Origin: an uncultured Lactobacillus sp.
Lineage (GTDB): Bacteria > Bacillota > Bacilli > Lactobacillales > Lactobacillaceae
Assembly: GCF_947367125.1 (NCBI RefSeq)
Contig: NZ_CANBCQ010000019.1
Location: 1-44,807 of the forward strand
DNA: 44,807 nt
Reading direction: 5' to 3'
In this document: piece by piece, positions 10,721-27,143 of the stretch
How the letters are laid out: each line of letters opens with the position of its first letter
How positions within the stretch are numbered: position 1 is the stretch's first letter
Translations under genes and position numbers: made by a program
The notes under the pieces: generated by a model
What the model saw: the letters and a program-made list of their open reading frames with translations, nothing else
Told to the model about the DNA's origin: nothing
Database searches by the model: none

Positions 10721-12262
10721 CTAATCTTTAATTTCTTTAATTGCATCAATAACTGTACCATCACGATATTCAACCAAAGCAACTGTACGATCAGTATATT
10801 CAAGTTTCTTAGGCACACCTACTTGTTTTTCTGCCATCTTTTGCAAATCCTTAATATCTAAGATCTGCAATCCTGGAACATTCTTAAATGCTTCAATCAA
10901 GTCTTGGCGAGCAGGATTAATTGCAATGCCTCGTTCAGTTACTAAGACATCAATTGATGAACCTGGAGTAACTACAGTCTCAACACTAGGAACTACTGTA
11001 GCATTTCTACCACGAACGAGTGGAGCCGTAATAATCGTCATCTTAGCACCAGCAGCTGAATCTTGGTGACCACCAACCGCACCACGAATGACACCATCTG
11101 AACCGGTCATTACGTTAACATTGAAGTCAGTGTCAATTTGCAAGGCTGATAAGATTGAAACATCAAGATTGTTTACAACAGCACCCTTGTTATGTGGATC
11201 GGCATACCAAGAAGCATCAATTTCTTGTTGATTACGGTTCTTAGCCATGGAAGCAGCAGCACCCTTATCGAAGTCCTGCACATCCATTACTTTTCTGACT
11301 AATCCTTCTTCAAGTAAATCAGTAGTTGGCTTAGTAATCCCACCAACAGCAAAAGAAGCAGTGATTCCCTTGTCAATCATCGCTTGACGAAGGTAACGAG
11401 TAACTGCCAAAGCAGCACCACCGGAACCAGTTTGGAAGCTAAAGCCTTCCTTGAAGTATGGTGAGTTAACGATTACTTGGTTAACCATTTGGGCAATCTT
11501 CAATTCCTTAGGGTCCTTAGTGAAACGAGTAGCACCGGAACCAATCTTGTCAGGATCACCGATCTTGTCTACCTTAACGATGTAGTCAACTTGGTCTTGT
11601 TTGATTGAAGCAGGGGTGTTGGGATAAGGAACAATATTATCAGTCAAAAGTACAACCTTGTTAGCATATTGAGCATCCATCAATGCATAACCCAATGAAC
11701 CAAAGACTGCATCCCCTTCTTGACCGTTAGCATTACCAGCTGGGTCAGAAATTGGCACACCTAAAAAGGCTACATCAATCTTAATTTCACCTTCTTCAAT
11801 TGAACGAGCACGGTTGCCATGTGAACGGAAAATAACTGGGTTCTTTAAGCCACCATGTGAAACAAAGTCGCCGAGTGAACCACGCATCCCAGAAGAAGTA
11901 ATATTAGTGATAACCCCCTTCTTGATAGCTTCAATAATCTTATCATTCATTACACCAGTCAATGATGATGGTGCCAAAGTTAAGTCCTTGTAGCCTAACT
12001 TAATGATTAAGTCCATTACCTTGTTAAAGGCAAAATCACCATTTCTGAAGTGGTGGTGGAAGGAAATCGTCATGCCATCTTTCAAGTTATCCTTGATTAC
12101 TTGCTCAAGTGAATCAACAACTTTATCTTGACCAGTAGTTACTCTAACCTTTGGTGCAACTCTTTGTTCTTCAGGGTGACCAATATCAGTTGTTTCATAA
12201 GGTTTTAGGTTTAATTCATTCATTAAGTCGTCTGGTAATTGACGTTTTACATTATTCTCCAA
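10721..12262 (-). CDS. citF: Citrate lyase alpha subunit (citrate-ACP transferase)
   Basis: About 513 residues. CitF exchanges the acetyl group on the lyase acyl carrier protein for citrate, the first half of citrate cleavage to acetate and oxaloacetate. The sequence shows the family pattern, for example FHHHFRNGD near the start, the GSLG/GANA-rich core and the [15 protein letters not shown] segment near the C-terminus. The frame opens at ATG 12283, but AGGAGG lies inside that stretch, nine bases before a TTG at 12262. The protein starting there ([12 protein letters not shown]) matches the length of known CitF, so TTG 12262 is preferred. It overlaps the citE stop by 11 bp. Last gene of the citCDEF unit. 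Confidence 0.9.
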
Positions 12263-13166
12263 TGTAATTGCCCTCCTCATCAATCAAGTTTGAAGCCTTA
12301 GCAGTTTGAAGGACTCTAGTAGCCTTTTCAACAACTGGCTTGTCAACCATCTTACCGTTCATTGAAATTACGCCGCTGCCTTTAGCTTTAGCTTCACGAA
12401 TTGCATTTTGAACGTTTTGTGCATCTTCAATTTCTTCTTTAGTTGGATTAAAGACTTTGTTAACCATGGCAATTTGGCGTGGGTTAACCAAACTCTTACC
12501 ATCGTAACCTAATTCATGAATATAGTTAGTTTCACGATAGAAGCCTTCAGTATCCTTCATATTAGAAAAGACAGTATCAAAGGCATAAACATCAGCGCTA
12601 CGAGCTGCTTGTAAAACCATGTTACGTGCAAATTCAAGTTCACGACCGTCTGGGTAACGATGAGTATGCATATCAGCGGTATAGTCTTCACCAGAAACAG
12701 CCAAGCCCATCATTAATGGCGTACTTTCTGCAATTTCAGGAGCGTGCAAAACACCTTTAGCTGATTCAATAGCGGCCATCACACCAATGGTGCCCCTTTC
12801 AATGCCAAATTCATCTTCCCAGTGTTCGATATCCTCAACCAACTTTTGAATCATGGCAGCTGATTCAGTCTTGGGTAAACGAATAACGTCAACACCGGCT
12901 TTGACCATGGCCTTTACATCTTCATCGTAGAATGGTGTATCTTGACCATTAACCCGGACTACAATTTCACTACCGCCAAAATCGACCGTCTTAATTGCTT
13001 CATAAACAAGCATTCTAGCAGCATCTTTTTCAGTTAAAGAAACTGAGTCTTCCAAGTCAAGCATAATTGAATCTGCGCCATAAATTCCTGCATCTTTAAT
13101 CATGGCTGGATTATTACCTGGCACAAACATCATCGTCCGACGCAAACGATTCTTAACGTAAGTCAT
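12252..13166 (-). CDS. citE: Citrate lyase beta subunit (citryl-ACP lyase)
   Basis: A 304-residue enzyme of the HpcH/HpaI aldolase superfamily, which splits citryl-ACP into oxaloacetate and acetyl-ACP. Conserved pieces are visible: [12 protein letters not shown] near residue 10 (nucleotide/CoA contact), the acidic LDLEDSV motif near 37-43 and the AAIESAKGV metal-site region near 131. Its ATG overlaps the citD stop as TAATG, typical of translational coupling. The beta subunit acts in the cytoplasm in a complex with CitD and CitF. Confidence 0.93.
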
Positions 13167-13459
13167 TAGAGCACCTCCAAATCTGGCTTATCTGATGTTT
13201 CAGTTGCCCGTTGAGCAGCGGCTAAAGTACGGGCCTTAATTACACAATCAAGTGCTCCCTTGTCTGTTGCCTTAACCTTAACATTTTCTAAACCATAAGC
13301 CTTTAAAGTATCAGTAATCACTTTTTTAATTTGATCACCGTATGTCTTTTTAACTTCTGATTCGAGATCAATATCAATTCCATTGGTTCCTTTAGAAATC
13401 ATAATTTGAATATCTGAACTTTCAAGTGTTCCAGCGACCGCTGTCGTTTTAATTTCCAT
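13166..13459 (-). CDS. citD: Citrate lyase acyl carrier protein (gamma subunit)
   Basis: A 97-residue carrier that bears the 2'-(5''-phosphoribosyl)-3'-dephospho-CoA arm of citrate lyase. The attachment serine is in the conserved GTLESSD motif; Ser14 corresponds to the modified residue of known CitD proteins. ATG 13459 follows AAAGGAATG and overlaps the citC stop by 11 bp. The cofactor needs CitG (synthesis) and CitX (attachment), neither of which is in this window. Confidence 0.93.
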   Translation of the reverse strand: MEIKTTAVAGTLESSDIQIMISKGTNGIDIDLESEVKKTYGDQIKKVITDTLKAYGLENVKVKATDKGALDCVIKARTLAAAQRATETSDKPDLEVL

Positions 13460-14504
13460 TAATATTCATTCCTTTCTCAATCCTCGATTGCAACTCCGGC
13501 ATGTTTTTCTTAATAAATTTATATGTCGTTTCTGGTACAAATTTATTGATTTCTCTCAAATTACCATCCTTGATTAGCTGTCTAACCTTGTTGGCAGTGA
13601 CAATTTGATCATCTTTTTGCAAACGATCAATTACGATTACTTCAATATCGGGTCCTAGTTCATGAGCCAAGCTAACATTATAATAATGGGTTGTTCTTGA
13701 AATAGGTTCTTTGCCAATATACCGCCGGGTAATATTAAGAGCTGGGGCAATTTGCTTCTTGAAAACAGCTGCATCAATTGCTGTTTGAACTGTAATTAGA
13801 TCATCCGGTGATTTCAAAAAGTATGCAGGGAAAGTAGCAGGAGAAACCATATAGTCACTGCCTGAAACTACTTTGACATTAGTAAATTCCTTCGTCCCCT
13901 CTTGTACTAACTTAAAACGTTCATCAAAGCTAAAAAGTGAGACATCATTGGCGACTACGAAAACATAAACCAAATCATTTTCTTCACTTGCTCTTTTAAC
14001 TAAGTGCTCATGTCCCAGGGTAAAAGGATTAGCATTCATCACAATTGCTGCTACTTTTTTATGTTCTTGATCCTCAACTTTAGGAATTTCAGCCACAAAA
14101 TCAGTCACATCAGGTGTCCCATTTTCTAAAAACGCTGCCTGATCTGTTTTAGCTAAAAGGTTAAAATGTAAATGTTCAAAACTTTCTGCATATTTAGCTT
14201 TAGTGAAGACAAATGAATGAAAAATACCTTCATTGGTTAAATATTGAGATAAAGCAGTGACCACTTTATTAAAACGTGCCCCTTGTTCTCCCTCATCATT
14301 TTTAACGCCAATATATTTCAAGACATTACCAGCTACACTACCGGTTCCAACTAAGTTGCCTTCATCGTTTTCCAAACCAATAGTATGGTCAAGCACATCA
14401 ACTTCACGCTCACTAAAATCATGCAAGCCCAAAGACGACAAAAGCTCTTCCCACTTTTGCTTAGTCGAATTATTGTTCAAAAACAAGTCAACGACTTTAT
14501 CCAT
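13449..14504 (-). CDS. citC: [Citrate lyase] ligase, acetylates CitD arm
   Basis: A 351-residue enzyme that uses ATP and acetate to charge the thiol of the CitD prosthetic group, switching citrate lyase on. The N-terminal part (about 1-125) is an acetyltransferase-like domain. The C-terminal part is a nucleotidyltransferase, with the phosphate-binding NPFTLGHEHLV motif (about 157-167) and an ISRTT motif matching the second T-x-x-H-type ATP site. First gene of citCDEF: ATG 14504 after AAGGTGG. A strong cre-like site and a -10 lie 25-45 bp upstream, which points to glucose repression. Confidence 0.93.
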   Translation of the reverse strand: MDKVVDLFLNNNSTKQKWEELLSSLGLHDFSEREVDVLDHTIGLENDEGNLVGTGSVAGNVLKYIGVKNDEGEQGARFNKVVTALSQYLTNEGIFHSFVFTKAKYAESFEHLHFNLLAKTDQAAFLENGTPDVTDFVAEIPKVEDQEHKKVAAIVMNANPFTLGHEHLVKRASEENDLVYVFVVANDVSLFSFDERFKLVQEGTKEFTNVKVVSGSDYMVSPATFPAYFLKSPDDLITVQTAIDAAVFKKQIAPALNITRRYIGKEPISRTTHYYNVSLAHELGPDIEVIVIDRLQKDDQIVTANKVRQLIKDGNLREINKFVPETTYKFIKKNMPELQSRIEKGMNINGN

Positions 14505-15461: not shown

Positions 15462-16931
15462 TTACCATACGCCGATAACCTTCATCCAAAGTGTTCCAAC
15501 GACGCCGAAGATAACTATGTAAATTAACCCTAAGACAAAGTTCATCTTCCACCATTCACCTTGCTTAACGTAACCAGTAGTGGCCAAGATTGAAGCTGGA
15601 CCATTTGCATAGTGAGTAGTTGAAGCGTTAATAGCACCAGTAAAGGCCAAAAGCATTGCTGAAAGACCTAAAGGAGCACCAGTAGCTACAGCAACTGACA
15701 AGAATGGCAAGTAAAGTGCTGTCATGTGTGCTGTACCACTAGCAAAGAAGTAGTGGGTGTAGAACAAAAGCAAAACTAAAATTGCCAAAACAAAACCCCA
15801 ACTAATGCCGTGAAGTCCAGTTTGAACAAGTTTAGAGAACCAATCAATAAAGCCATAAGAAATCAACTTACCTGCCATGAACATCAAGATTGAAAGCCAA
15901 ATCAAAATGTTCCAAGCGCCAGTTTCTTTCAAAGCGTCTTGCATAGTCAAGACACCAGCAATCATCAAAATAGCTACAGCTAAGAAGGCAACAAAAGTAG
16001 CGTCCAATTGTGGAATCTTAAAGAAACCTGATAATACCCACAGAATAATTGAAAGAACGAAAACAGCGCTCATAATTTTTTCTGGGGTAGACATTGGTCC
16101 CATTTTTTGGAGCTTTTCATCAGCCCATTTTTTAGCATCTGGAGTTTCCTTAATTTCTGGTGGATACATCTTGTAGATTACCCAAGGGATAATTATGGCA
16201 GCTACTGCTACTGGCACGATTGCCGTGAAGAACCAACCAGCCCAAGACATTTGATAACCTTTTTGAGCAGCTAATTGTTGGGCAACCATGTTAGGAGCCG
16301 CACCAGTAATGAACAAAGCCGTTGACAAAATATTGGCATGAAAGGCAGTGAAGTCAATATAAGCACCGATCTTTTTACGTGAAGCTTCATCAGGCTTTGA
16401 ATCGTAACCTTCCTTGGAAACAGATTCGACAACTGGCCAAACAACCCCGCCAGTACGAGCAGAGTTAGATGGAATCAAAGCACCAAGAACTAATTCCAAA
16501 CCGGCAATCGCATACCCGATACCCAATGATTTTTTACCAAACTTTTCAATCATGATATAAGCAATTCGGTTACCTAAACCAGTTTTACTAATCCCATGTG
16601 CCATAATGAAAGCCATCGCAATTAACCAAGCAGCAGAGTTACCAAATGAGCTAAGCACACCTTGATTAATTACAACACCTTTGGCATTAGTTACATCCTT
16701 CATTGGTGCTAAACCAACTAATACAGTTACTACTAGACCAGTTAAAGTTGTACCACCAATTGGTAAAGGCTTGGTAATACAACCCACAATAGTTGCAACA
16801 AAAATGCTAAACATTTGCCAAGCCTGTGGAGTTAACCCACTAGGCCGCCATGGCGTAATGCACCAGAGTACAATCCCTACAACTAAAGGCCAAATAAAGC
16901 CTTTATAATTTACTTTTTCTAAAGTTTTCAT
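15462..16931 (-). CDS. DASS-family citrate/dicarboxylate carrier (CitT-like)
   Basis: A 489-residue transporter of the divalent anion:Na+ symporter family with about 12 membrane segments. The DASS signature loops are visible: PSNSARTGG (about 153-161, the first S-N-T type motif) and the second half ASTTHYANGPASI (about 435-447) that binds carboxylate. Within DASS it looks like the CitT/TtdT exchangers, which swap citrate or tartrate for succinate. It lies 18 bp after the RraA-like gene (RBS AGGGGATT) and next to citCDEF, supporting citrate uptake with succinate release. The transport mode is inferred. Confidence 0.85.
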   Translation of the reverse strand: MKTLEKVNYKGFIWPLVVGIVLWCITPWRPSGLTPQAWQMFSIFVATIVGCITKPLPIGGTTLTGLVVTVLVGLAPMKDVTNAKGVVINQGVLSSFGNSAAWLIAMAFIMAHGISKTGLGNRIAYIMIEKFGKKSLGIGYAIAGLELVLGALIPSNSARTGGVVWPVVESVSKEGYDSKPDEASRKKIGAYIDFTAFHANILSTALFITGAAPNMVAQQLAAQKGYQMSWAGWFFTAIVPVAVAAIIIPWVIYKMYPPEIKETPDAKKWADEKLQKMGPMSTPEKIMSAVFVLSIILWVLSGFFKIPQLDATFVAFLAVAILMIAGVLTMQDALKETGAWNILIWLSILMFMAGKLISYGFIDWFSKLVQTGLHGISWGFVLAILVLLLFYTHYFFASGTAHMTALYLPFLSVAVATGAPLGLSAMLLAFTGAINASTTHYANGPASILATTGYVKQGEWWKMNFVLGLIYIVIFGVVGTLWMKVIGVW

Positions 16932-16949: not shown

Positions 16950-17648
16950 TTATGGACGGTAAATGTCATCAATAATCTCAAAACCTTTATCAGCTAAAGA
17001 TCGATCAACCCAACTAAGATCTACTTCTCCCTTGCTAAAAGCAATTGCTTTGGCATCATCTTGCTTGTGAAAGGCTTGAGCCTTAGGCAAGATTTCAGGT
17101 GCGTCCCGACGTGGAATACAAATTACTCCATCTGGATCACCCAAAATCACATCGCCTGGATTAACACTGACATTACCACAAGCAACTGGTACATTTAATT
17201 CGCCTGGTCCCTCCTTATATGGACCACCTGGTGTCGTACTTGTTGCATAAATTGGTAATTTCCAATGCTGCAAATTGTCAATATCACGAATCGGCCCATC
17301 GATCACAATTCCAGCAATTTTCTTTTGATCACGCAAATATGACATCATTACTTCACCAATCAGTGAACGAGTAGTATCACCTTCATCATCAATAACGATC
17401 ACATCCCCTGGTTGACAATACCTTAAAGCTGCATAAATTGCTAAATTATCACCGGCTCTAGTGTGAACCGTAAATGCCGGTCCCACCATTTCTTCATCAG
17501 GACTTGACATTAACTTAATTCGCGGATTCATCGCACAATTACGTTCCATACAATCAGCAGTATTTGATGCAGGAATCCCTTTAAATCCTGCTACTATTTG
17601 TGGATCTGGCATTTGCCGCTTTAAATAAATCCTCTTTCCTACAGGCAT
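16950..17648 (-). CDS. RraA / HMG-CHA aldolase-like protein, possible oxaloacetate decarboxylase
   Basis: A 232-residue protein of the RraA-like fold (PF03737). HMG/CHA aldolases of this family also decarboxylate oxaloacetate with Mg2+. The catalytic set is conserved here: G98-E99 in LIGEVMM, and R121-D122 in VIDGPIRDID, corresponding to the Arg-Asp pair of the Pseudomonas aldolase. Plain RraA (RNase E inhibitor) has little reason to sit in a citrate locus. It is cotranscribed with the DASS carrier (18 bp apart), so turning citrate-derived oxaloacetate into pyruvate is the attractive role. ATG 17648 after AAAGGGGAAA. The fold call is strong; the activity is inferred. Confidence 0.75.
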   Translation of the reverse strand: MPVGKRIYLKRQMPDPQIVAGFKGIPASNTADCMERNCAMNPRIKLMSSPDEEMVGPAFTVHTRAGDNLAIYAALRYCQPGDVIVIDDEGDTTRSLIGEVMMSYLRDQKKIAGIVIDGPIRDIDNLQHWKLPIYATSTTPGGPYKEGPGELNVPVACGNVSVNPGDVILGDPDGVICIPRRDAPEILPKAQAFHKQDDAKAIAFSKGEVDLSWVDRSLADKGFEIIDDIYRP

Positions 17649-19354: not shown

Positions 19355-20284
19355 TTAAAGTTCAATACCATCTAAGACTTCTTGCATCTTATCTGCTGAA
19401 TTAATCATCTTGTCATGTTCAGCAGCTGAAAGCTTAGTTTCGATAACCTTTTCAATACCTTCACCATTAATTACAGTTGGAGTACCTAAGTAAAGGTCAT
19501 GCTTAATGCCATATTCGCCGTTAATTGGTGCTGAAAGTGGCAAACAAATTGAACGGTTGTCTAAAACAGCACTAACAATTTGAGTAAGCATCATAGCAAC
19601 ACCGTAAAATGTAGCACCCTTGTTAGCAATGATCTTGCCGCCCTTCTTACGGACGTCAGTTTCAATTTCTGCTAAAACATCGTCATTAATTTCTGAATAA
19701 TCGCGAAGTGCTTTGCCAGCAACAGTTGATTCATCGAAGTTTTCAAAACTAGTATCACCGTGTTCACCAAGAACCATTGAGTTAACCTTGGCAACTGGAA
19801 CATTTAACTTCTTAGCAAGTTCAACACGAAGACGCATTGAGTCAAGTGAAGTACCAGTACCAATTACACGATTCCTAGGAAAACCTGATAATTTTTGAGT
19901 TAAAGTAGTTAAAATATCAACCGGGTTAGCTGAAACCACGAAAACACCCTTAAAGCCGGAATCAACAACAGGTTCAACAATATTCTTTAAAATCTTGACG
20001 TTCTTAGCAACAAGGTCAAGTCTAGTTTCACCTGGCTTACGAGGTACACCAGCAGTAATTACACAAACATCAGCGTCTTTAGCGTCACTATAATCTGCTG
20101 CAGGATGAATATTAGTTTGACCCATAAATGGAGTAATATCTTCAAGGTCCATTGCATCCCCCACTGGACGATCCTTGGCTACATCAAAAATTGCCAATTC
20201 ATCAACAGTAGCATTCTGCAATAAATCATTTGCAAAAGTTGAACCAACAGCACCATCACCAACAAGAAATACTTTTCTACTCAT
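19355..20284 (-). CDS. LDH-family dehydrogenase with malate-type specificity residue
   Basis: A 309-residue NAD-dependent 2-hydroxyacid dehydrogenase of the LDH/MDH family. NAD fold GDGAVGS (9-15), catalytic His175 in GEHGDT, substrate Arg151 in LDSMRLR, mobile-loop Arg88. The specificity position (residue 102 in LDH numbering) is Gln in L-lactate dehydrogenases and Arg in malate dehydrogenases. Here the loop reads AGVPRKPGETR, with Arg82 at that place, as in GVARKPG of bacterial MDH. The family's Thr in KGATFYG, common in LDH, is kept. The neighbours are fumarase and fumarate reductase. I infer oxaloacetate reduction to malate, although homology scoring would give lactate dehydrogenase. It has its own promoter with a cre-like site. 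Confidence 0.7.
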   Translation of the reverse strand: MSRKVFLVGDGAVGSTFANDLLQNATVDELAIFDVAKDRPVGDAMDLEDITPFMGQTNIHPAADYSDAKDADVCVITAGVPRKPGETRLDLVAKNVKILKNIVEPVVDSGFKGVFVVSANPVDILTTLTQKLSGFPRNRVIGTGTSLDSMRLRVELAKKLNVPVAKVNSMVLGEHGDTSFENFDESTVAGKALRDYSEINDDVLAEIETDVRKKGGKIIANKGATFYGVAMMLTQIVSAVLDNRSICLPLSAPINGEYGIKHDLYLGTPTVINGEGIEKVIETKLSAAEHDKMINSADKMQEVLDGIEL

Positions 20285-20474: not shown

Positions 20475-21851
20475 TTATTTGTTCTCACGGATATACTTAG
20501 CCATCTGAATACCGGCTTGACGACCAAAAATAACTGTTTCGGCAATTGAATTACCACCGATTCGATTATTTCCGTGAAGTCCACCAGATACTTCTCCAGC
20601 AGCAAATAGGCCATCGATTACATTACCATTAGTATCGAGTACTTGAGTTTCAGTATTAATGTGAATACCACCCATTGTATAGTGAATAGCAGGATGAACA
20701 TGAATTGCAAAGTAAGGACCACGATCTAATTCACGATCCATCCCTGTAGTTCTGCTAAATTCTTTATCCTTACCAGTTGCGACAGCCTTGTTCCAGCTTT
20801 CAATTGTTTTATTTAAATTATCAGCATTCACACCAATCTTTTTAGCCAAATCAGCCAGACTATCGCCATGTTCAACCAAGCCAATCTGATCATAAAATTC
20901 AACGGCAGCAAAGTGCGCACGCACACCTGAATCAAAGACAAGATAAGCTCCATCTTCATGTAAATCAGTAATTGCCTGTGACACAATCTTACGCGTACTC
21001 AATTCGTTAACAAAACGATTACCACTCTTGTTAACTAAAATCGCACCTTCACCACGTAAGCCTTCACCAATTAAATAAACATGTGGATTATCAGTATCAG
21101 CAGTTGGGTGAACTTGAATAAAGTTCATTTGCATCAATTGGGCATCAAGTGCTTCAGCTAACTTCAAGCCATCACCGGTTGCACCTGGTTGGTTAGTTGT
21201 CTTGTAGTCAACTAAATCTGGACGATACTTTTTAATAATTTCTTTTGAAGCACCAAAACCACCAGTTGCTAATAAGACTGCTTTAGCTTTAATTGTCTTA
21301 GTACCATCGGGAGTTTCAACTTCTACGCCATTAACTTGCTTTTTAGAATTTTGCAATAACTTCGTAACCTTAGCACTAGTAAAAATATTAACCCCAGCTT
21401 TTTTAACCTGAGTAGTCATTCTTGAAGTTAAATAAAAGCCAACTGGTTCCATTGAAGCAGGACGGTGAGCACGTTTTTTGCTCATCCCTCCTGTAATAGT
21501 CAAATCAGTTAAACGAATACCATATTTCATCAACCATGAAATAGCTAAAGCTGAGTGATTAGCAAAATATTTAAGCATTGCTCGGTCATTTAATAAACCG
21601 CCGCCCTTTAAGGTCTCTTCATAGAAATCTCTGTTATTATCAATGATTCCTTCATCAAGTTGAACCAATGATTCAGAAGCGTTCATCCCACTAGAAGCTC
21701 GACTAGTGTTACCACCAGTCTTTTCATTTTTTTCTAGTACCACAACATTCAAGCCTAATTCATGAGCTTGTAATGCTGCAGTCAAGCCTGCGCCACCTGA
21801 ACCAACAACAACTGCATCATATTTATTTTTTAATTCTTTTGTGTTTGGCAT
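20475..21851 (-). CDS. Single-subunit soluble fumarate reductase flavoprotein
   Basis: A 458-residue FAD enzyme of the flavocytochrome c / urocanate reductase group, reducing fumarate to succinate. FAD motif GSGGAG (17-22). Active-site residues can be lined up with the Shewanella enzyme: His248 in VHPT, the proton-donor Arg at 287 (STRKIVSQ), His390 in IHYTMGG and Arg430 in NNRIGGNS; the 40-residue gap between the last two matches. There is no signal peptide, heme domain or FMN-binding domain, so it must take electrons from a soluble carrier. RBS AGGAAAG; it follows fumarase after 11 bp, so one transcript makes fumarate and then reduces it. No clear terminator follows. Confidence 0.85.
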   Translation of the reverse strand: MPNTKELKNKYDAVVVGSGGAGLTAALQAHELGLNVVVLEKNEKTGGNTSRASSGMNASESLVQLDEGIIDNNRDFYEETLKGGGLLNDRAMLKYFANHSALAISWLMKYGIRLTDLTITGGMSKKRAHRPASMEPVGFYLTSRMTTQVKKAGVNIFTSAKVTKLLQNSKKQVNGVEVETPDGTKTIKAKAVLLATGGFGASKEIIKKYRPDLVDYKTTNQPGATGDGLKLAEALDAQLMQMNFIQVHPTADTDNPHVYLIGEGLRGEGAILVNKSGNRFVNELSTRKIVSQAITDLHEDGAYLVFDSGVRAHFAAVEFYDQIGLVEHGDSLADLAKKIGVNADNLNKTIESWNKAVATGKDKEFSRTTGMDRELDRGPYFAIHVHPAIHYTMGGIHINTETQVLDTNGNVIDGLFAAGEVSGGLHGNNRIGGNSIAETVIFGRQAGIQMAKYIRENK

Positions 21852-21862
21852 CTTTTACTTTC

Positions 21863-23266
21863 CTATTCTTCTGGAGTGGACTTATCAACATTAGTCATTT
21901 GCATGTAGTTCATCCATTTATCATATTGTTCTTCCGTAACTTTGCCACTCTTTAAGGCAGCTTCTTTCAAAGTTGTCCCTTCCTTATCAGCAGTTTGAGC
22001 AATTTTAGCTGCTGCATGGTAGCCAATGTGTGGTGACAAAGCTGTAACCGTCATTAATGAATTTTCAAGTAATTCATCCATTCTTTCTTCATTGACTGTT
22101 AGGCCATGAATCATTTTATCAGCAAAACCAGTAATTGTGCCAGTTAAAATATCACAAGTATCAAGGAAAGCGGCAATAATTACCGTCTTGAAGACATTCA
22201 TTTCAAAATTACCTTGGCTTGAAGCAAAAGTAATTGTAGTATCATTACCAAATACCTTAGCAGCAGCCATCGTTACAGCTTCTGCTTGAGTTGGGTTAAC
22301 TTTACCTGGCATAATGCTTGATCCTGGTTCATTAGCCGGAATATTTAATTCATGGTAACCAGCTCTTGGACCTGAAGCAAGTAAACGAATGTCTTGTGCG
22401 ATTTTGAACATATCAGCAGCCAAGGTTTTAAGAGCACCATGAACCACATCAAGACCTGAGTGGTGAGCCAAGCCCCAGAATTTATTAGTTTTAACTTCAA
22501 ATTTATGACCATAAACTTCTGATAATTTACCAGCAATTTTTTCAGTCATTCCCGGTGCAGCATTCAATCCAGTACCTACAGCAGTACCACCAATTGCTAA
22601 TTCATAAAGAGTTGGTTTTAATTCACGAATATATGATAAATCATGCTTAAGAGCTGAAATATAACCGGAAATTTCTTGACCGAAAGTTAAAGGAGTCGCA
22701 TCTTGCAAGTGGGTTCGACCAACTTTAACTGTCTTCCAGTATTTCTTTTCTTTCACAACTAATTCATCAATCAAATGTTGAATTGCTGGTTCAAGCTTGT
22801 CTAAAGCTTCAACAGCAACGATATTCATTGCTGTTGGATAAGTATCATTAGAAGATTGACCACGGTTAACATCGTCATTTGGCAAAATGTCCAAGCCAGG
22901 ATGCAACTTATTAGCCAAGTTAGCAACTACTTCATTAACATTCATGTTGCTCTGCGTACCTGAACCTGTTTGCAAAACATGAAGTGGGAAGTCTTTACGC
23001 AAGTCTGTATCACTCAAAGCTAAAAGATGGTCAATTGCATCTTCAATTGCTTCTCCTTTTTCCTTAGGTTCATCTCCAACTTCAACATTGCTTTCTGCCG
23101 CAGCCTTCTTTAAGTGTAAAAATGCTCGAATAATTTGCAATGGCATTAATTCGCCACTTGGGAAGTTATTGCGACTTCTTTCGGTTTGAGGACCCCACAA
23201 AGCATCTTTAGGAATCTTAACTGGACCAATAGTATCACTTTCAATGCGGTATTCTTCTTCGCTCAT
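21863..23266 (-). CDS. fumC: Class II fumarate hydratase
   Basis: A 467-residue class II fumarase of the aspartase/fumarase superfamily, interconverting malate and fumarate. The signature GSSIMPGKVNP is intact, and the TGSGTQSNMNVNEV and GRTHLQDA segments that form the active site are present. ATG 23266 is preferred: AGGAGG lies six bases upstream, whereas the upstream in-frame ATG at 23293 has no RBS. First gene of a fumC-fumarate reductase transcript driven by a good promoter. In context it dehydrates malate toward succinate rather than running a cycle. Confidence 0.93.
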   Translation of the reverse strand: MSEEEYRIESDTIGPVKIPKDALWGPQTERSRNNFPSGELMPLQIIRAFLHLKKAAAESNVEVGDEPKEKGEAIEDAIDHLLALSDTDLRKDFPLHVLQTGSGTQSNMNVNEVVANLANKLHPGLDILPNDDVNRGQSSNDTYPTAMNIVAVEALDKLEPAIQHLIDELVVKEKKYWKTVKVGRTHLQDATPLTFGQEISGYISALKHDLSYIRELKPTLYELAIGGTAVGTGLNAAPGMTEKIAGKLSEVYGHKFEVKTNKFWGLAHHSGLDVVHGALKTLAADMFKIAQDIRLLASGPRAGYHELNIPANEPGSSIMPGKVNPTQAEAVTMAAAKVFGNDTTITFASSQGNFEMNVFKTVIIAAFLDTCDILTGTITGFADKMIHGLTVNEERMDELLENSLMTVTALSPHIGYHAAAKIAQTADKEGTTLKEAALKSGKVTEEQYDKWMNYMQMTNVDKSTPEE

Positions 23267-23323
23267 TATTTTCCTCCTTATTATCTGCAACATAAGGTTT
23301 TTGTTAATTATTTATCACCTTTT

Positions 23324-23457: not shown

Positions 23458-24408
23458 TTAAAATGTAATTAATTTATTTTCATTCATTGTTTCATCATTA
23501 AATTGATACTTCTTAAGCTCAAAGTCATTTTCAAAATTGCAGTAATAAGTCTTGGTGTTAGCAGAATAGCAAGCCGTATAAACAGTGTATTCGTCACTAC
23601 CTTGATTATTAACCACGCTCCCTTTAACCATGGCAACTGACTTAAGAATATTAAAGAACTTAGCTATATTAGCTTTTTCACCCTTGGCAACTGGGTAATT
23701 AGCATTCAAATAAGCTGCTTTAACAAAACGATCAGCTGGAATACTGTCACCAGGTAAACCAACACTGCCAGTGCCGACACCCCATGGAGCAACATCTTGA
23801 CCATTCCAATTTTCGCTTGTTGCATCATGTGGATTCAAGCCAGTGTAATTGCCTAAATTAGTTACTTGCCAGTTAAAGTCTGGGCTGTTAGTCAAAACGC
23901 CAAGTTTATCTTCAAATACCTTAAAGCCATATTGCTTAGACATTTCGACAATGATTGCTTCTTTATTGTCACTAATAATCCAGTGCAATGGAGCGACCGC
24001 AAATGATGAATTAATGGCTTCATTGACTAAGTTAACGTTCTTTAAAGCTTCTTTTACTTCACTTACCGTCGTAAAGTTTTGGGTTACCCAGAGCATTATT
24101 TCATAGGAAGCCAAATTAATCTTGCCATCAATCGGACCATCACTGAACTTAGCATAGTGTGGAAAGTTCAAACCGGCAATCCCCAAACCATCTTCATTAA
24201 AGCAATCAAAATATGAAGGATAACCATCAACTACAATCCCCATTCCGATTACTGCTTTAGTGGTTTTAGTATCATCCAAGAACTTATATGGTAATGGGTA
24301 ATTACGTGGGGTAATAATTACGCCTTCACCATAATCTTGACCTACATCTAAATTACGACCGAAATATAAATTACCTTTGTCATCTGTAAATCTTAATCCT
24401 GTACACAT
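23458..24408 (-). CDS. bsh: Conjugated bile salt hydrolase
   Basis: A 316-residue Ntn hydrolase (choloylglycine hydrolase) that removes glycine or taurine from bile salts. Cys2 becomes the N-terminal nucleophile once Met is removed. The other catalytic residues are in place: Arg18, Asp21, Asn81, Asn174 and Arg227. The length agrees with lactobacillus enzymes. It lies 14 bp after a cbsT-type transporter, in the known cbsT1-cbsT2-hydrolase order of L. johnsonii. RBS GAGAGGAAT before ATG 24408. Cytoplasmic; its substrates would be brought in by the adjacent transporters. Confidence 0.95.
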   Translation of the reverse strand: MCTGLRFTDDKGNLYFGRNLDVGQDYGEGVIITPRNYPLPYKFLDDTKTTKAVIGMGIVVDGYPSYFDCFNEDGLGIAGLNFPHYAKFSDGPIDGKINLASYEIMLWVTQNFTTVSEVKEALKNVNLVNEAINSSFAVAPLHWIISDNKEAIIVEMSKQYGFKVFEDKLGVLTNSPDFNWQVTNLGNYTGLNPHDATSENWNGQDVAPWGVGTGSVGLPGDSIPADRFVKAAYLNANYPVAKGEKANIAKFFNILKSVAMVKGSVVNNQGSDEYTVYTACYSANTKTYYCNFENDFELKKYQFNDETMNENKLITF

Positions 24409-24422
24409 ATTAAATTCCTCTC

Positions 24423-25784
24423 TTATTCGCTAGCTACTTGTTTTTCGTTTTTAGCAATATATTCTTTTTGAATTTTCTTAATTCTAACTACGGAAACAAC
24501 TAAAAGAATAAAACCAATAATTACAAAGGCCATCATGAAGTACCATGCAACCGTAAAACTTGCCATGCCCTTAATAATACCAAATAATGGAGCACCAATG
24601 GCATAACCAATCGCATAAGCTAAGCCAACGTAACCAAGCATTACCCCTTGTTCTTTAGCACCAAACAAGTCTTTTGCCATAAAGGCAGGTCCTGACATAT
24701 AACTAAATACGGCTAAACCACAAAAGATTGAATAAGCTATTCCAATAGTTCTGCTCATCGATGAGCCATAGGGCTGCAAACTAACAATAATCATCATGGC
24801 AATGGATAAAACGTACATGCAACCTGCATAGGTCATAGACTTAGCTGTACCAAATTTATCAAATAGAATACCACCTGATACATTGCCGATTAGACAACCG
24901 ACTCCATACATGGACCCAACTAGGCCAACATCAGTTAAAGACATCTTAGTGTCCAAAAAGGCAGCATAATCTTCGTTTAATGAAGCCAGGCCCAAGCCAA
25001 TAATCAAGAAACCTAAACTAAAGATCCAGAACCACTTCATTTTTACAACTTCTTTACTAGTCCAACCTTGGAATTCATGCGCCTTTGCCTTAGCTGCAGC
25101 ATCCTTGCTTTCTTTTAATTCTTCAGCAGTTGCTACAACTTCATTCTTCTTAGGAGTCCTAATAAAGAAGGAAATAATTACACCGACAACCAACAATGCA
25201 ACAGCAAAAATAAAGAATGGAGCCATTGATGTTAAATGACCAGTTTTAGTATTTCCTGTCATAAATTGCTTTAAAATTGCTTGCGTAGTTGGCTGCAAGA
25301 TAATATTACCGATTGAGCCACCACAAAAGGCAATTCCTAAGGCAGCACCACGGCCCTTTGCTGGGAACCAGTGATTAATTACCCAAGGAACACCCTGACC
25401 AGAGAAGAATGTTGAACCGATCATACAAATAATTGCTGCTAGATAAAATCCTGGTAATTTTGTACTAATACCAAAAATTACGTAGGCAACAGCTGAACAA
25501 CCGATACCGATTAAATACATTAATCTAAAATTGATCTTTTCTAATCCTTTACCAATAAATGGTGAAGCAATTGATGAAGCGATCGCCCCAAAAGTAAAAA
25601 TCAAAGTATATGAAGCTAAGGTAAAATGAAATGTATTAACCAATGGGTGCACAAACAATGGCTGAATATTTTGTGCAATCCCATATGGAATCGCTTGCGT
25701 TAACATACATAGAAACACCATGAAATATTTATAGCCTTTACTTACTGTTTTTTGATTTACAGCAGTTGAACTACTACTACTCAT
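24423..25784 (-). CDS. cbsT2: MFS transporter linked to bile salt hydrolase (cbsT2-like)
   Basis: A 453-residue major facilitator with 12 predicted helices, close to the oxalate/formate antiporter (OFA) group. The N- and C-halves are joined by a charged cytoplasmic loop (around 205-245). It matches the CbsT proteins that move conjugated bile salts in L. johnsonii. ATG 25784 is preferred, after AAGAAGG; the frame extends to a TTG that overlaps the RBS. It is a tandem paralogue of the broken gene upstream. The hydrolase follows after 14 bp. With cbsT1 broken, this is the only intact bile salt carrier here. Confidence 0.85.
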   Translation of the reverse strand: MSSSSSTAVNQKTVSKGYKYFMVFLCMLTQAIPYGIAQNIQPLFVHPLVNTFHFTLASYTLIFTFGAIASSIASPFIGKGLEKINFRLMYLIGIGCSAVAYVIFGISTKLPGFYLAAIICMIGSTFFSGQGVPWVINHWFPAKGRGAALGIAFCGGSIGNIILQPTTQAILKQFMTGNTKTGHLTSMAPFFIFAVALLVVGVIISFFIRTPKKNEVVATAEELKESKDAAAKAKAHEFQGWTSKEVVKMKWFWIFSLGFLIIGLGLASLNEDYAAFLDTKMSLTDVGLVGSMYGVGCLIGNVSGGILFDKFGTAKSMTYAGCMYVLSIAMMIIVSLQPYGSSMSRTIGIAYSIFCGLAVFSYMSGPAFMAKDLFGAKEQGVMLGYVGLAYAIGYAIGAPLFGIIKGMASFTVAWYFMMAFVIIGFILLVVSVVRIKKIQKEYIAKNEKQVASE

Positions 25785-25815
25785 TTTGTTTTCCTTCTTT
25801 CCTGACAAATTAAAA

Positions 25816-27143
25816 CTACTTAACAGACGTATCAGCGATCAGATTCTTTTGTAATTGCTTAATTCTAAGTGAAGCAATAATTAATAAAATAAAACCTACT
25901 GAAACAAAGCATACTGTAAAACACCATGCAACTGTGAAGTTAAACATTCCTTTAATCACACCAAACAGTGGCGCACCAACAGCAAAGCCAATAGCATACG
26001 CCAAACTGACATATCCTAAATTAACTCCTTGTGCTTTAGCACCAAACAGGCTTTTGGTCATAAAAGCTGGACCTGACATATAGCTAAATACGGATAGACC
26101 GCTTGTAATTGCATATCCCATTCCAGCAATATAGTTCATATTTGCGCCATAGGGATGCACACTAATAAAAATCATTAATAAAATTGAAATTACTAGCATC
26201 GTCCCCGCATATGCCATTGCTTTAGCTATTCCTAGCCTATCGAACAAATATCCTCCTGATACATTGCCGATAATCCCTGCCATACCAAAGACCGAACCGA
26301 TTAGTCCTACCTGAGCCAGGGATAATTTAGTATCCAGGAATGCTGCATAATCTTCATTCAAAGAAGCCATTCCTAAGCCGAAAATCAAGAAGCCAATACT
26401 GAAGATCCAGAACCATTTCATTTTCAGGACTTGCTCACTGCTCCAGTCCTGAAATTCATGAGTACTAGATGCTTGTGTTTTCTTAGCTACTACGGAGTCA
26501 GAATTTCACTTTTTCTAGGAATACGAATAAATGCCGCAATAATCAACCCTACAATCAAAAGTGCAATTCCAAAAATAAAGAAAGGCATCATTGATGTTAA
26601 GTAGCCAGTTTTTGCATTGCCAACCATATATTTCTTTAAAATGCCTTGTGTTAGTGGCTGTAAAAAGATTTCACCAATTGAACCACCACAAAAGGCAATA
26701 CCTAATGCCACACCTCTTCCTTTTGACGGAAACCAATGATTAATAATCCAAGGAACGCCTTGACCTGAATAGAATGTTGATCCTACCATGCAGACAATTC
26801 CTGCCAAATAAAAACCCGGTAGCTTAGTACTGATACCAAAAATGAAATAAGCGCCAGCAGACAAAGCAATCCCAATCAAATACATAATTTTGAAGTTAAC
26901 TTTAGGCAATGCTTTACCTACTAATGGTGATACTAGTGATCCCACTATTGCTCCAAAGGTAAAAATCAAAGTATATGAAGCCAACGTAAAATGAAATGTA
27001 TTAACCAATGGATGGACAAATAAGGGCTGGATTAACTGGGCGATTCCATATGGTATTGCTTGCGTAAGCATACACAAGAAAACCATAAAGTACTTATAAC
27101 TCTCACTAACCGGCTTTTTATTAATCGCCAGCTTATCATTCAT
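25816..27143 (-). pseudogene. cbsT1: cbsT1-like MFS transporter, broken by one-base frameshift
   Basis: Two adjacent frames together encode a protein parallel to cbsT2. The upstream part (26490-27143) has 217 residues and ends RIPRKSEILTP before a stop. The downstream part (25816-26421) carries the C-terminal half from MKWFWIFSIGF. In the other frame between them one reads NSDSVVAKK and then HEFQDWSSEQVLKMKW, matching HEFQGWTSKEVVKMKW of cbsT2. One extra A in the three-A run at 26504-26506 would join them as RKSENSDSVV. So a single-base deletion broke the gene, unless it is a sequencing error. RBS AAGGGATTGG before ATG 27143. The C-terminal half may be translated from an internal ATG, but half a carrier is unlikely to work. 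Confidence 0.85.

What the first reader, a model, noticed from the sequence alone, without database searches (positions are those of the whole stretch)
19355..20284. LDH-family enzyme with the malate-specificity arginine
At LDH position 102 the sequence has Arg82 (GVPRKPG), not Gln. This is the swap known to turn lactate dehydrogenase into malate dehydrogenase. Automatic annotation will probably call it lactate dehydrogenase. Its location next to fumarase and fumarate reductase fits malate dehydrogenase and would supply the missing oxaloacetate-to-malate step.
Basis: partly seen in the sequence, partly recalled or inferred. Interest (0 to 1): 0.7.

Follow-up and report, generated by a model that had tools for sequence, protein, structure and literature searches.

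The report
Lactate dehydrogenase turned malate dehydrogenase
This Lactobacillus gene, which databases call a lactate dehydrogenase, carries the arginine typical of malate dehydrogenases yet groups with the lactate dehydrogenases of its own bacterial family, so it is likely a lactate enzyme that turned into a malate enzyme and would fill a missing step from citrate to succinate.

Summary
Confirmed and extended. ORF 19355-20284(-) is an intact 309-aa LDH-fold protein with Arg82 at LDH position 102; curated models call it L-LDH. Citrate lyase, DASS transporter, fumarase-like and fumarate-reductase-like genes surround it; oxaloacetate-to-malate is the gap it would fill. The genome has no other MDH candidate of the Ldh_1, Ldh_2 or malic-enzyme families.

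New: 47 Lactobacillaceae Arg102 rows form one clade (100/100) within Lactobacillaceae LDHs, far from true MDHs; one Arg102 protein from elsewhere (L190) lies outside. The clade lost acidic residue 199 (Glu 29/29 to Ser 43/47) and gained Gly236 (47/47; MDH 9/9) but keeps Thr246. Citrate/fumarate genes flank 51 of 66 Arg102 loci and 0 of 21 Gln102 loci. Lactobacillus jensenii, reported to make only D-lactate, has an Arg102 protein as its sole Ldh_1 member.

Best reading: a natural LDH-to-MDH reversal, counterpart of the engineered Gln102Arg LDH. No kinetics; fifteen Arg102 loci lack the neighbours; Thr246 leaves pyruvate use possible. MDH activity in lactobacilli is not new; this origin looks new within the searches made.

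The parts
19355..20284 (-). Arg102 LDH-family enzyme, predicted malate dehydrogenase (309 aa)
20039..20041 (-). codon of Arg82 (LDH position 102), CGT
19748..19750 (-). codon of Ser179 (LDH position 199; Glu in Gln102 LDHs)
19640..19642 (-). codon of Gly215 (LDH position 236; Ala in Gln102 LDHs, Gly in MDHs)
19610..19612 (-). codon of Thr225 (LDH position 246, LDH state retained)
20475..21851 (-). FAD_binding_2 flavoprotein (flavocytochrome c model), inferred fumarate reductase
   Evidence: NF005064 609.7 bits, cut-off 542
21863..23293 (-). class II fumarase-like protein
   Evidence: TIGR00979 590.7 bits, best match but under its cut-off of 664.75
16950..17648 (-). RraA-like protein, possible competitor for oxaloacetate
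   Evidence: PF03737; the models named oxaloacetate decarboxylase match under their cut-offs
15462..16931 (-). DASS-family anion transporter, inferred to carry citrate or a dicarboxylate
   Evidence: TIGR00785 367 bits, cut-off 198.6
13449..14504 (-). citC, citrate lyase ligase
13166..13459 (-). citD, citrate lyase acyl carrier protein
12252..13166 (-). citE, citrate lyase beta subunit
   Evidence: 441.9 bits, just under the cut-off of 443.4
10721..12283 (-). citF, citrate lyase alpha subunit

Best explanation
This gene belongs to one clade of Arg102 proteins that groups with the lactate dehydrogenases of the Lactobacillaceae, and it is likely an NADH-dependent malate dehydrogenase that probably arose from a Gln102 lactate dehydrogenase in that family. 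Shown: the sequence, Arg102, Ser199, Gly236, retained Thr246, the place in the tree, and the neighbourhood. [quoted passage not shown] Inferred pathway: citrate enters by the DASS transporter, citrate lyase gives acetate and oxaloacetate, this enzyme makes malate, the fumarase-like enzyme makes fumarate, and the flavoprotein reduces it to succinate, so that citrate serves as an electron sink. Inferred history: Arg102 and Gly236 came first and Ser199 later, because the earliest-branching rows of the clade carry Glu or Gln at 199.
For: (1) Position 102: Arg in 47 of 47 clade rows, Gln in 29 of 29 Lactobacillaceae LDHs used, Arg in 9 of 9 MDHs. (2) Position 199: Glu 29/29 in those Gln102 LDHs against Ser 43/47 here; position 236: Ala 29/29 against Gly 47/47, with Gly in 9/9 MDHs. 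PMC9486893 passages give Q102, D/E199, T246 as the LDH signature and R102, M199, A/S246 as that of MalDH type 3. (3) Tree with loop and 246 columns removed: the clade (100/100) lies in a 69-row clade (100/100) with 22 Gln102 Lactobacillaceae LDHs. Joining it with the MDHs is rejected (AU p 0.0167, delta lnL 50.9). A second tree without six long rows and without columns 199, 236, 237 and 250 keeps it among Gln102 LDHs. (4) Neighbourhood within 7 kb: 51 of 66 Arg102 loci have fumarase, flavoprotein, DASS or citrate lyase genes; 0 of 21 Gln102 loci do, Fisher p 7e-11. (5) Own genome: three Ldh_1 proteins in all, namely a Gln102 LDH, this one and a third with Val in the aligned column; no Ldh_2 and no malic-enzyme match. 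(6) L. jensenii DSM 20557 has one Ldh_1 protein, the Arg102 one, between DASS and cit genes; L. jensenii is reported to make only D-lactate (PMC6805993). A table lists L. plantarum strains with ldhL1 as the only deleted LDH gene at 99% or more optically pure D-lactate (PMC8897852), although L. plantarum also has an Arg102 protein named L-LDH (P0208). (7) Precedent from passages: Gln102Arg alone makes B. stearothermophilus LDH an MDH (PMC4109310).
Against: No kinetics. [quoted passage not shown] in A. fulgidus MalDH an Ile at 250, the LDH-like state that this clade also has (Val or Ile), lowered oxaloacetate efficiency from 4.3e6 to 1.3e5. Fifteen of 66 Arg102 loci lack the neighbours: seven (L057-L059, L063, L064, L074, L076) share a layout with similar-sized genes (thiD and argS in L057, the one annotated), three are L. 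delbrueckii-like or near it (L124-L126), and the others are L009, L010, L014, L017 and L122. Fumarase is in 72 of 75 genomes of the genus, so genome-level co-occurrence says nothing. Whether the clade is nested among the 22 Gln102 rows or sister to them is unresolved (22/1 and other weak nodes). One Arg102 protein from outside the family (L190) does not join the clade. The fumarase and flavoprotein assignments are by best score. D-lactate phenotypes could reflect lack of expression; that the deleted ldhL1 is the Gln102 gene is recalled. A membrane malate:quinone oxidoreductase was not searched for.
Confidence: 0.84

Rival explanations
1. A bifunctional lactate/malate dehydrogenase: Arg102 admits oxaloacetate but Thr246 and the LDH frame keep useful pyruvate activity, so it works as a second L-LDH as well.
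For: Thr246 is kept in 232 of 232 homologues; passages say some intermediate-group MalDHs with Thr246 take both substrates (PMC9486893); overlapping activities are argued for the clostridial pair (PMC3268733).
Against: L. jensenii has only this Ldh_1 protein and is reported to make only D-lactate; L. plantarum strains without ldhL1 are listed at 99% or more D-lactate; A. fulgidus MalDH with Arg102/Thr246 showed no detectable pyruvate activity (table seen).
Confidence: 0.1
2. A retained ancestral malate dehydrogenase of the intermediate Arg102/Thr246 group, not an LDH that reverted.
For: Arg102 with Thr246 occurs in that group (PMC9486893).
Against: Grouped with Lactobacillaceae LDHs at 100/100 and again among Gln102 LDHs; joining it with the MDHs is rejected; position 250 is Val/Ile, not the Pro of the MDHs. 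No intermediate-group sequence was knowingly in the tree.
Confidence: 0.03
3. An oxidoreductase for another 2-oxo acid (for example a larger dicarboxylate or a tartronate-like acid), with the citrate cluster as a neighbour only.
For: Fifteen of 66 loci lack the neighbours; Gly236-Gly237 would widen the pocket (inference).
Against: The neighbourhood recurs across several genera; Arg102 is the oxaloacetate residue of known MDHs (PMC4109310).
Confidence: 0.03

Closest known systems
Canonical L-lactate dehydrogenase of lactobacilli (e.g. L. casei 2zqy, L. pentosus 1ez4, L. reuteri 9jlo)
   Different: Arg not Gln at 102, Ser not Glu at 199, Gly not Ala at 236
Bacterial malate dehydrogenase, MalDH type 3 (TIGR01763)
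   Same: Arg102 and Gly236; predicted reaction
   Different: Thr not Ala at 246, Ser not Met at 199, Val/Ile not Pro at 250; TIGR01763 score 214.1 of 351.85; far away in the tree
Engineered B. stearothermophilus LDH Gln102Arg (Wilks 1988, seen only as cited in PMC4109310, PMC3268733 and PMC9486893)
   Same: LDH frame with the same specificity swap
   Different: Natural, and with further changes at 199 and 236
Intermediate MalDH group (A. fulgidus, Ignicoccus; PMC9486893 passages)
   Same: Arg102 with Thr246
   [quoted passage not shown] this clade groups with Lactobacillaceae LDHs
Clostridium cellulolyticum Ccel_0137 malate dehydrogenase (PMC3268733 passages)
   Same: LDH-family protein with Arg at the same position; the mutant kept 28% of wild-type MDH activity
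   Different: The authors' tree put most LDHs and MDHs in separate lineages, with weak deep support; I did not put it in my tree by name

Membership tests
Canonical L-lactate dehydrogenase | Score over the curated cut-off of NF000824 / TIGR01771 | tested here: met
   413.4 of 339 and 334.3 of 303.55 bits
Canonical L-lactate dehydrogenase | Gln102 | tested here: not met
   Arg82
Canonical L-lactate dehydrogenase | Acidic residue at 199 | tested here: not met
   Ser179
Canonical L-lactate dehydrogenase | Thr246 | tested here: met
   Thr225
Canonical L-lactate dehydrogenase | Pyruvate preferred over oxaloacetate | not testable with these tools
   no assay
MalDH type 3 (TIGR01763) | Arg102 | tested here: met
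MalDH type 3 (TIGR01763) | Met199, Ala/Ser246, Pro250 | tested here: not met
   Ser, Thr, Val
MalDH type 3 (TIGR01763) | Score over curated cut-off | tested here: not met
   214.1 of 351.85 bits
MalDH type 3 (TIGR01763) | Common clade with known MalDH type 3 | tested here: not met
   tree; AU p 0.0167 against it
Intermediate MalDH group | Arg102 with Thr246 | tested here: met
Intermediate MalDH group | Branches between MalDH type 3 and LDHs | tested here: not met
   grouped with Lactobacillaceae LDHs; known intermediate sequences were not put in the tree
Malate dehydrogenase by function (works like) | Oxaloacetate reduction with NADH | not testable with these tools
   no assay; context and residues only

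The most novel reading that the evidence does not exclude
Evolution ran the classic experiment backwards: the Lactobacillaceae turned a lactate dehydrogenase into a malate dehydrogenase once, by Gln102Arg with Gly236 and then Glu199Ser while keeping Thr246. This widespread natural LDH-to-MDH reversal hides in databases under the name L-lactate dehydrogenase and is the MDH reported missing in citrate-using lactobacilli.
Probability: 0.72. Interest if true: 0.72.

Novelty: new variant of a known kind. Interest (0 to 1): 0.62.

Why it matters
Passages read here describe four or more natural MDH-to-LDH transitions and mention none the other way (PMC9486893; PMC4109310). They also call position-102 switches strongly dependent on background. 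A natural reversal in a clade whose Gln102 relatives are about half identical (50 to 55% to the window protein) offers a direct test of which further changes (199, 236) an LDH needs to become an MDH. It would correct the annotation of a gene in many lactobacilli, could explain why a D-lactate-only species such as L. jensenii carries an L-LDH gene, and may supply the malate dehydrogenase reported missing in L. fermentum 222 (PMC4604094; that strain's own genome was not examined here).

Tried and rejected
Genome-level co-occurrence with fumarase: uninformative, 72 of 75 genomes have it. L-2-hydroxyisocaproate dehydrogenase reading: set aside, the genome's third Ldh_1 protein (L023, Val in the aligned column) fits that label better; the label is mine, from memory. 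Intermediate-MDH origin: disfavoured by tree and AU test. A first count of position 102 by pattern matched the wrong place in three homologues (P0142, P0198, P0212); the alignment shows Arg in all three. The first neighbourhood control missed two Gln102 loci because the pattern asked for TAG; one search has all 21.

Limits of counts. The tree used 105 rows: 96 of the 171 distinct LDH-family sequences and 9 of 11 MDHs; six long rows (L190 among them) were dropped, whose bootstrap had not settled. In some searches and 76 rows were labelled by group; the 20 rows labelled O hold 16 Gln, 2 Ile, 1 Pro and 1 Arg (L190). Only one alternative grouping was put to the AU test. Outside the Lactobacillaceae, residue 102 was read only in loci fetched from searches of 118 order and 149 phylum genomes, so Arg102 elsewhere is not excluded. 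Neighbours were recognised by phmmer with window proteins at bit thresholds of my choice, ORFs of 180 aa or more only. The 66 Arg102 loci are those with flanks; several have short flanks (L007, L010, L016, L017, L056, L091) and were kept in, as were short Gln102 loci (L209, L211); Arg102 loci fetched without flanks were not counted. Some loci are from close species and not independent. Homologue lists are the best 120 of three searches.

The structure model (pLDDT 92.2, pTM 0.91; top rows are LDHs) shows an intact fold and says nothing about specificity; no docking was possible. The position-109 count read the wrong column (Leu89); Arg88 is read from the motif and is invariant in the 46-row alignment.

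Literature: ten searches listed no paper on a natural LDH-to-MDH change in lactobacilli. I saw listings and passages only, and most subscription papers are not held. Recalled, not seen: L. plantarum ldhL2 lies by its citrate genes; older work on succinate from citrate in lactobacilli.

Full report
WHAT IS THERE. The ORF at 19355-20284 (minus strand) is intact: ATG start, TAA stop, 309 residues. It has both Ldh_1 domains, and the catalytic His175, Asp148 and Arg151 are conserved. Curated models place it over the cut-off for L-lactate dehydrogenase (NF000824 413.4 of 339 bits; TIGR01771 334.3 of 303.55) and well under that for bacterial malate dehydrogenase (TIGR01763 214.1 of 351.85). The best matches among solved structures are lactobacillus LDHs. 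Its loop reads TAGVPRKPGETRL, so Arg82 is in the LDH position 102 column, and Thr225 is the LDH Thr246.

NEIGHBOURHOOD IN THE WINDOW. On the same strand lie a fumarate-reductase-like flavoprotein and a fumarase-like protein (upstream in transcription), and downstream a C1 peptidase, an RraA-like protein, a DASS transporter, an alpha/beta hydrolase and citC, citD, citE and citF. The fumarase match is under its curated cut-off and the flavoprotein's model name is flavocytochrome c, so those two functions are inferred. With citrate lyase making oxaloacetate, the uncovered step to succinate is oxaloacetate to malate. The own genome (2.34 Mb, 76 contigs, 99.94% complete) has three Ldh_1 proteins: a Gln102 LDH, this one, and a third with Val in the aligned column that I label HicDH-like from memory. 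It has no Ldh_2 protein, no malic enzyme and no TIGR01763 match at E<=1e-90. Malate:quinone oxidoreductase was not searched for.

RESIDUES. Of 171 distinct LDH-family sequences pulled from the loci, 89 have Arg102, 78 Gln, 2 Ile, 1 Val and 1 Pro. Eighty-eight of the 89 Arg rows are from Lactobacillaceae; the other (L190) is from elsewhere in the phylum, on a very long branch. In the 105-row set the Lactobacillaceae Arg clade differs from Lactobacillaceae Gln102 LDHs at further positions. At 199, Glu in 29/29 becomes Ser in 43/47 (2 Glu, 1 Gln, 1 Leu). At 236, Ala in 29/29 becomes Gly in 47/47, and MDHs have Gly in 9/9. Thr246 is kept in 47/47, and 250 is Val (41) or Ile (6), not the Pro of MDHs. 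Passages of PMC9486893 name Q102, D/E199, T246 as the LDH signature and R102, M199, A/S246 as the MalDH type 3 one, and say that acidic 199 gives charge neutrality in the LDH site. So here 102 and 199 have left the LDH state while 246 and 250 have not. Against an easy switch: the same passages call Thr246 unfavourable for oxaloacetate, and Ile250 put into A. fulgidus MalDH lowered its oxaloacetate efficiency from 4.3e6 to 1.3e5 without giving pyruvate activity. The earliest-branching clade rows have Gln (L091) or Glu (L083, L089) at 199 but already have Gly236, which suggests Arg102 and Gly236 first and Ser199 later. Among 232 homologues listed by three searches, Arg102 is in 231 of 231 with that column filled, Gly236 in 231 of 231, Ser199 in 228 of 232 and Thr246 in 232 of 232. 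These are near relatives by selection.

ORIGIN. A tree of 105 rows with the loop and 246 columns removed and nine MDHs as outgroup gives the 47 Lactobacillaceae Arg102 rows as one clade (100/100) in a 69-row clade (100/100) whose other 22 rows are Gln102 Lactobacillaceae LDHs. Outside it lie the other seven Lactobacillaceae Gln102 rows (the genus's own LDH among them) and 20 rows from other families of the phylum: 16 Gln102, 2 Ile, 1 Pro and L190 (Arg). Forcing the Arg102 clade together with the MDHs costs 50.9 log-likelihood units, AU p 0.0167. Dropping six long rows and also columns 199, 236, 237 and 250 leaves the clade intact (100/99) and still among Gln102 LDHs; the nodes that nest it among the 22 are weak (22/1 to 79/94), so nested or sister is open. 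With rows labelled by group, two changes are needed on that tree for the clade and the MDHs against the rest. The simplest reading is one Gln-to-Arg change in a lactobacillus LDH.

NEIGHBOURHOOD ELSEWHERE. Within 7 kb, 51 of 66 Arg102 loci have at least one of fumarase (28), flavoprotein (23), DASS transporter (38) or citrate lyase genes (38). None of 21 Gln102 LDH loci, taken from genomes that by score also have an Arg102-type gene, has any; Fisher p 7e-11. Fifteen Arg102 loci have none: L009, L010, L014, L017, L057 to L059, L063, L064, L074, L076, L122 and L124 to L126; L010 and L017 have short flanks. L057 has thiD beside it and argS next. Some of the 66 loci are from close species, so they are not fully independent. 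In the L. jensenii locus (L013) the gene lies between DASS-like genes and the citrate lyase genes.

PHENOTYPE CHECKS FROM PAPERS. Ten named genomes were searched for Ldh_1 proteins. L. jensenii DSM 20557 and L. pasteurii DSM 23907 have one each, the Arg102 protein; L. psittaci has two; the other seven have three or four. PMC6805993 states that L. jensenii makes only the D isomer while L. crispatus and L. gasseri make both (passages). A comparison table in PMC8897852 lists L. delbrueckii strains at 99.0 to 99.8% D-lactate where a value is given. The L. delbrueckii subsp. bulgaricus protein P0110 is Arg102, and the genome whose locus matches it at 97% (G062, L125) shows one match at E<=1e-40. 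The same table lists L. plantarum NCIMB 8826 strains with ldhL1 as the only deleted LDH gene (they carry other changes too) at 99% or more D-lactate, although L. plantarum also carries an Arg102 protein named L-LDH (P0208; not shown for that strain). That ldhL1 is the Gln102 gene is recalled. Expression differences could also explain these facts.

WHAT IS KNOWN. Passages show that MDH activity or an MDH gene is already assigned to some lactobacilli: L. reuteri by BLAST (PMC6821008), L. gasseri by BLAST, citing work on L. panis (PMC6680863), and an mdh gene in L. plantarum 80, while in L. fermentum 222 the MDH gene was reported missing (PMC4604094). So malate dehydrogenase in lactobacilli is not new, and which gene those papers meant I did not check. 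What I did not find in ten searches is the statement that it descends from their own LDH. Gln102Arg is the classic engineering result (cited in PMC4109310, PMC3268733 and PMC9486893), and the natural changes described in the passages run from MDH to LDH. C. cellulolyticum Ccel_0137 is a known LDH-like MDH with Arg at this place (PMC3268733).

VERDICT. Observation confirmed; interpretation supported by several independent lines, with no assay. Best explanation: malate dehydrogenase of a citrate-to-succinate electron sink, evolved from LDH (0.84). Main doubts: Thr246 and possible pyruvate use, the 15 loci without the neighbours, and the lack of kinetics.

Noticed in passing
L190: An Arg102 + Thr246 LDH-like protein from outside the Lactobacillaceae, on a very long branch next to L179 (Pro at 102) and away from the Lactobacillaceae Arg102 clade; possibly an independent case.
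   Followed up: no
window 23458-27143 (-): Bile salt hydrolase, a bile-salt MFS transporter, and a second MFS transporter present as two shorter ORFs (201 and 217 aa), perhaps a broken gene.
   Followed up: no
window 16950-17648 (-): RraA-like gene, near the Arg102 gene also in L005, L007, L008, L012 and L019; models named oxaloacetate decarboxylase match it under their cut-offs, so it may compete for the same substrate.
   Followed up: partly
L021, L114, L117, L118, L121: The Gln102 LDH of the genus Lactobacillus groups with LDHs of two other Lactobacillaceae genera (L144, L145; 95/95) and then with other Lactobacillales families (89/74), apart from the other Lactobacillaceae LDHs, which hints at transfer or old paralogy.
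   Followed up: no
G037:C101:38408-40595: A genome of the same genus with an intact Arg102 gene and, beside it, pieces of a second copy with one stop codon.
   Followed up: no
L060, 10152-11348 (+): A 398-aa malic-enzyme-like gene (under the models' cut-offs) inside the citrate cluster of another lactobacillus; no malic enzyme was found in the window's genome, which suggests alternative fates of oxaloacetate between species.
   Followed up: partly
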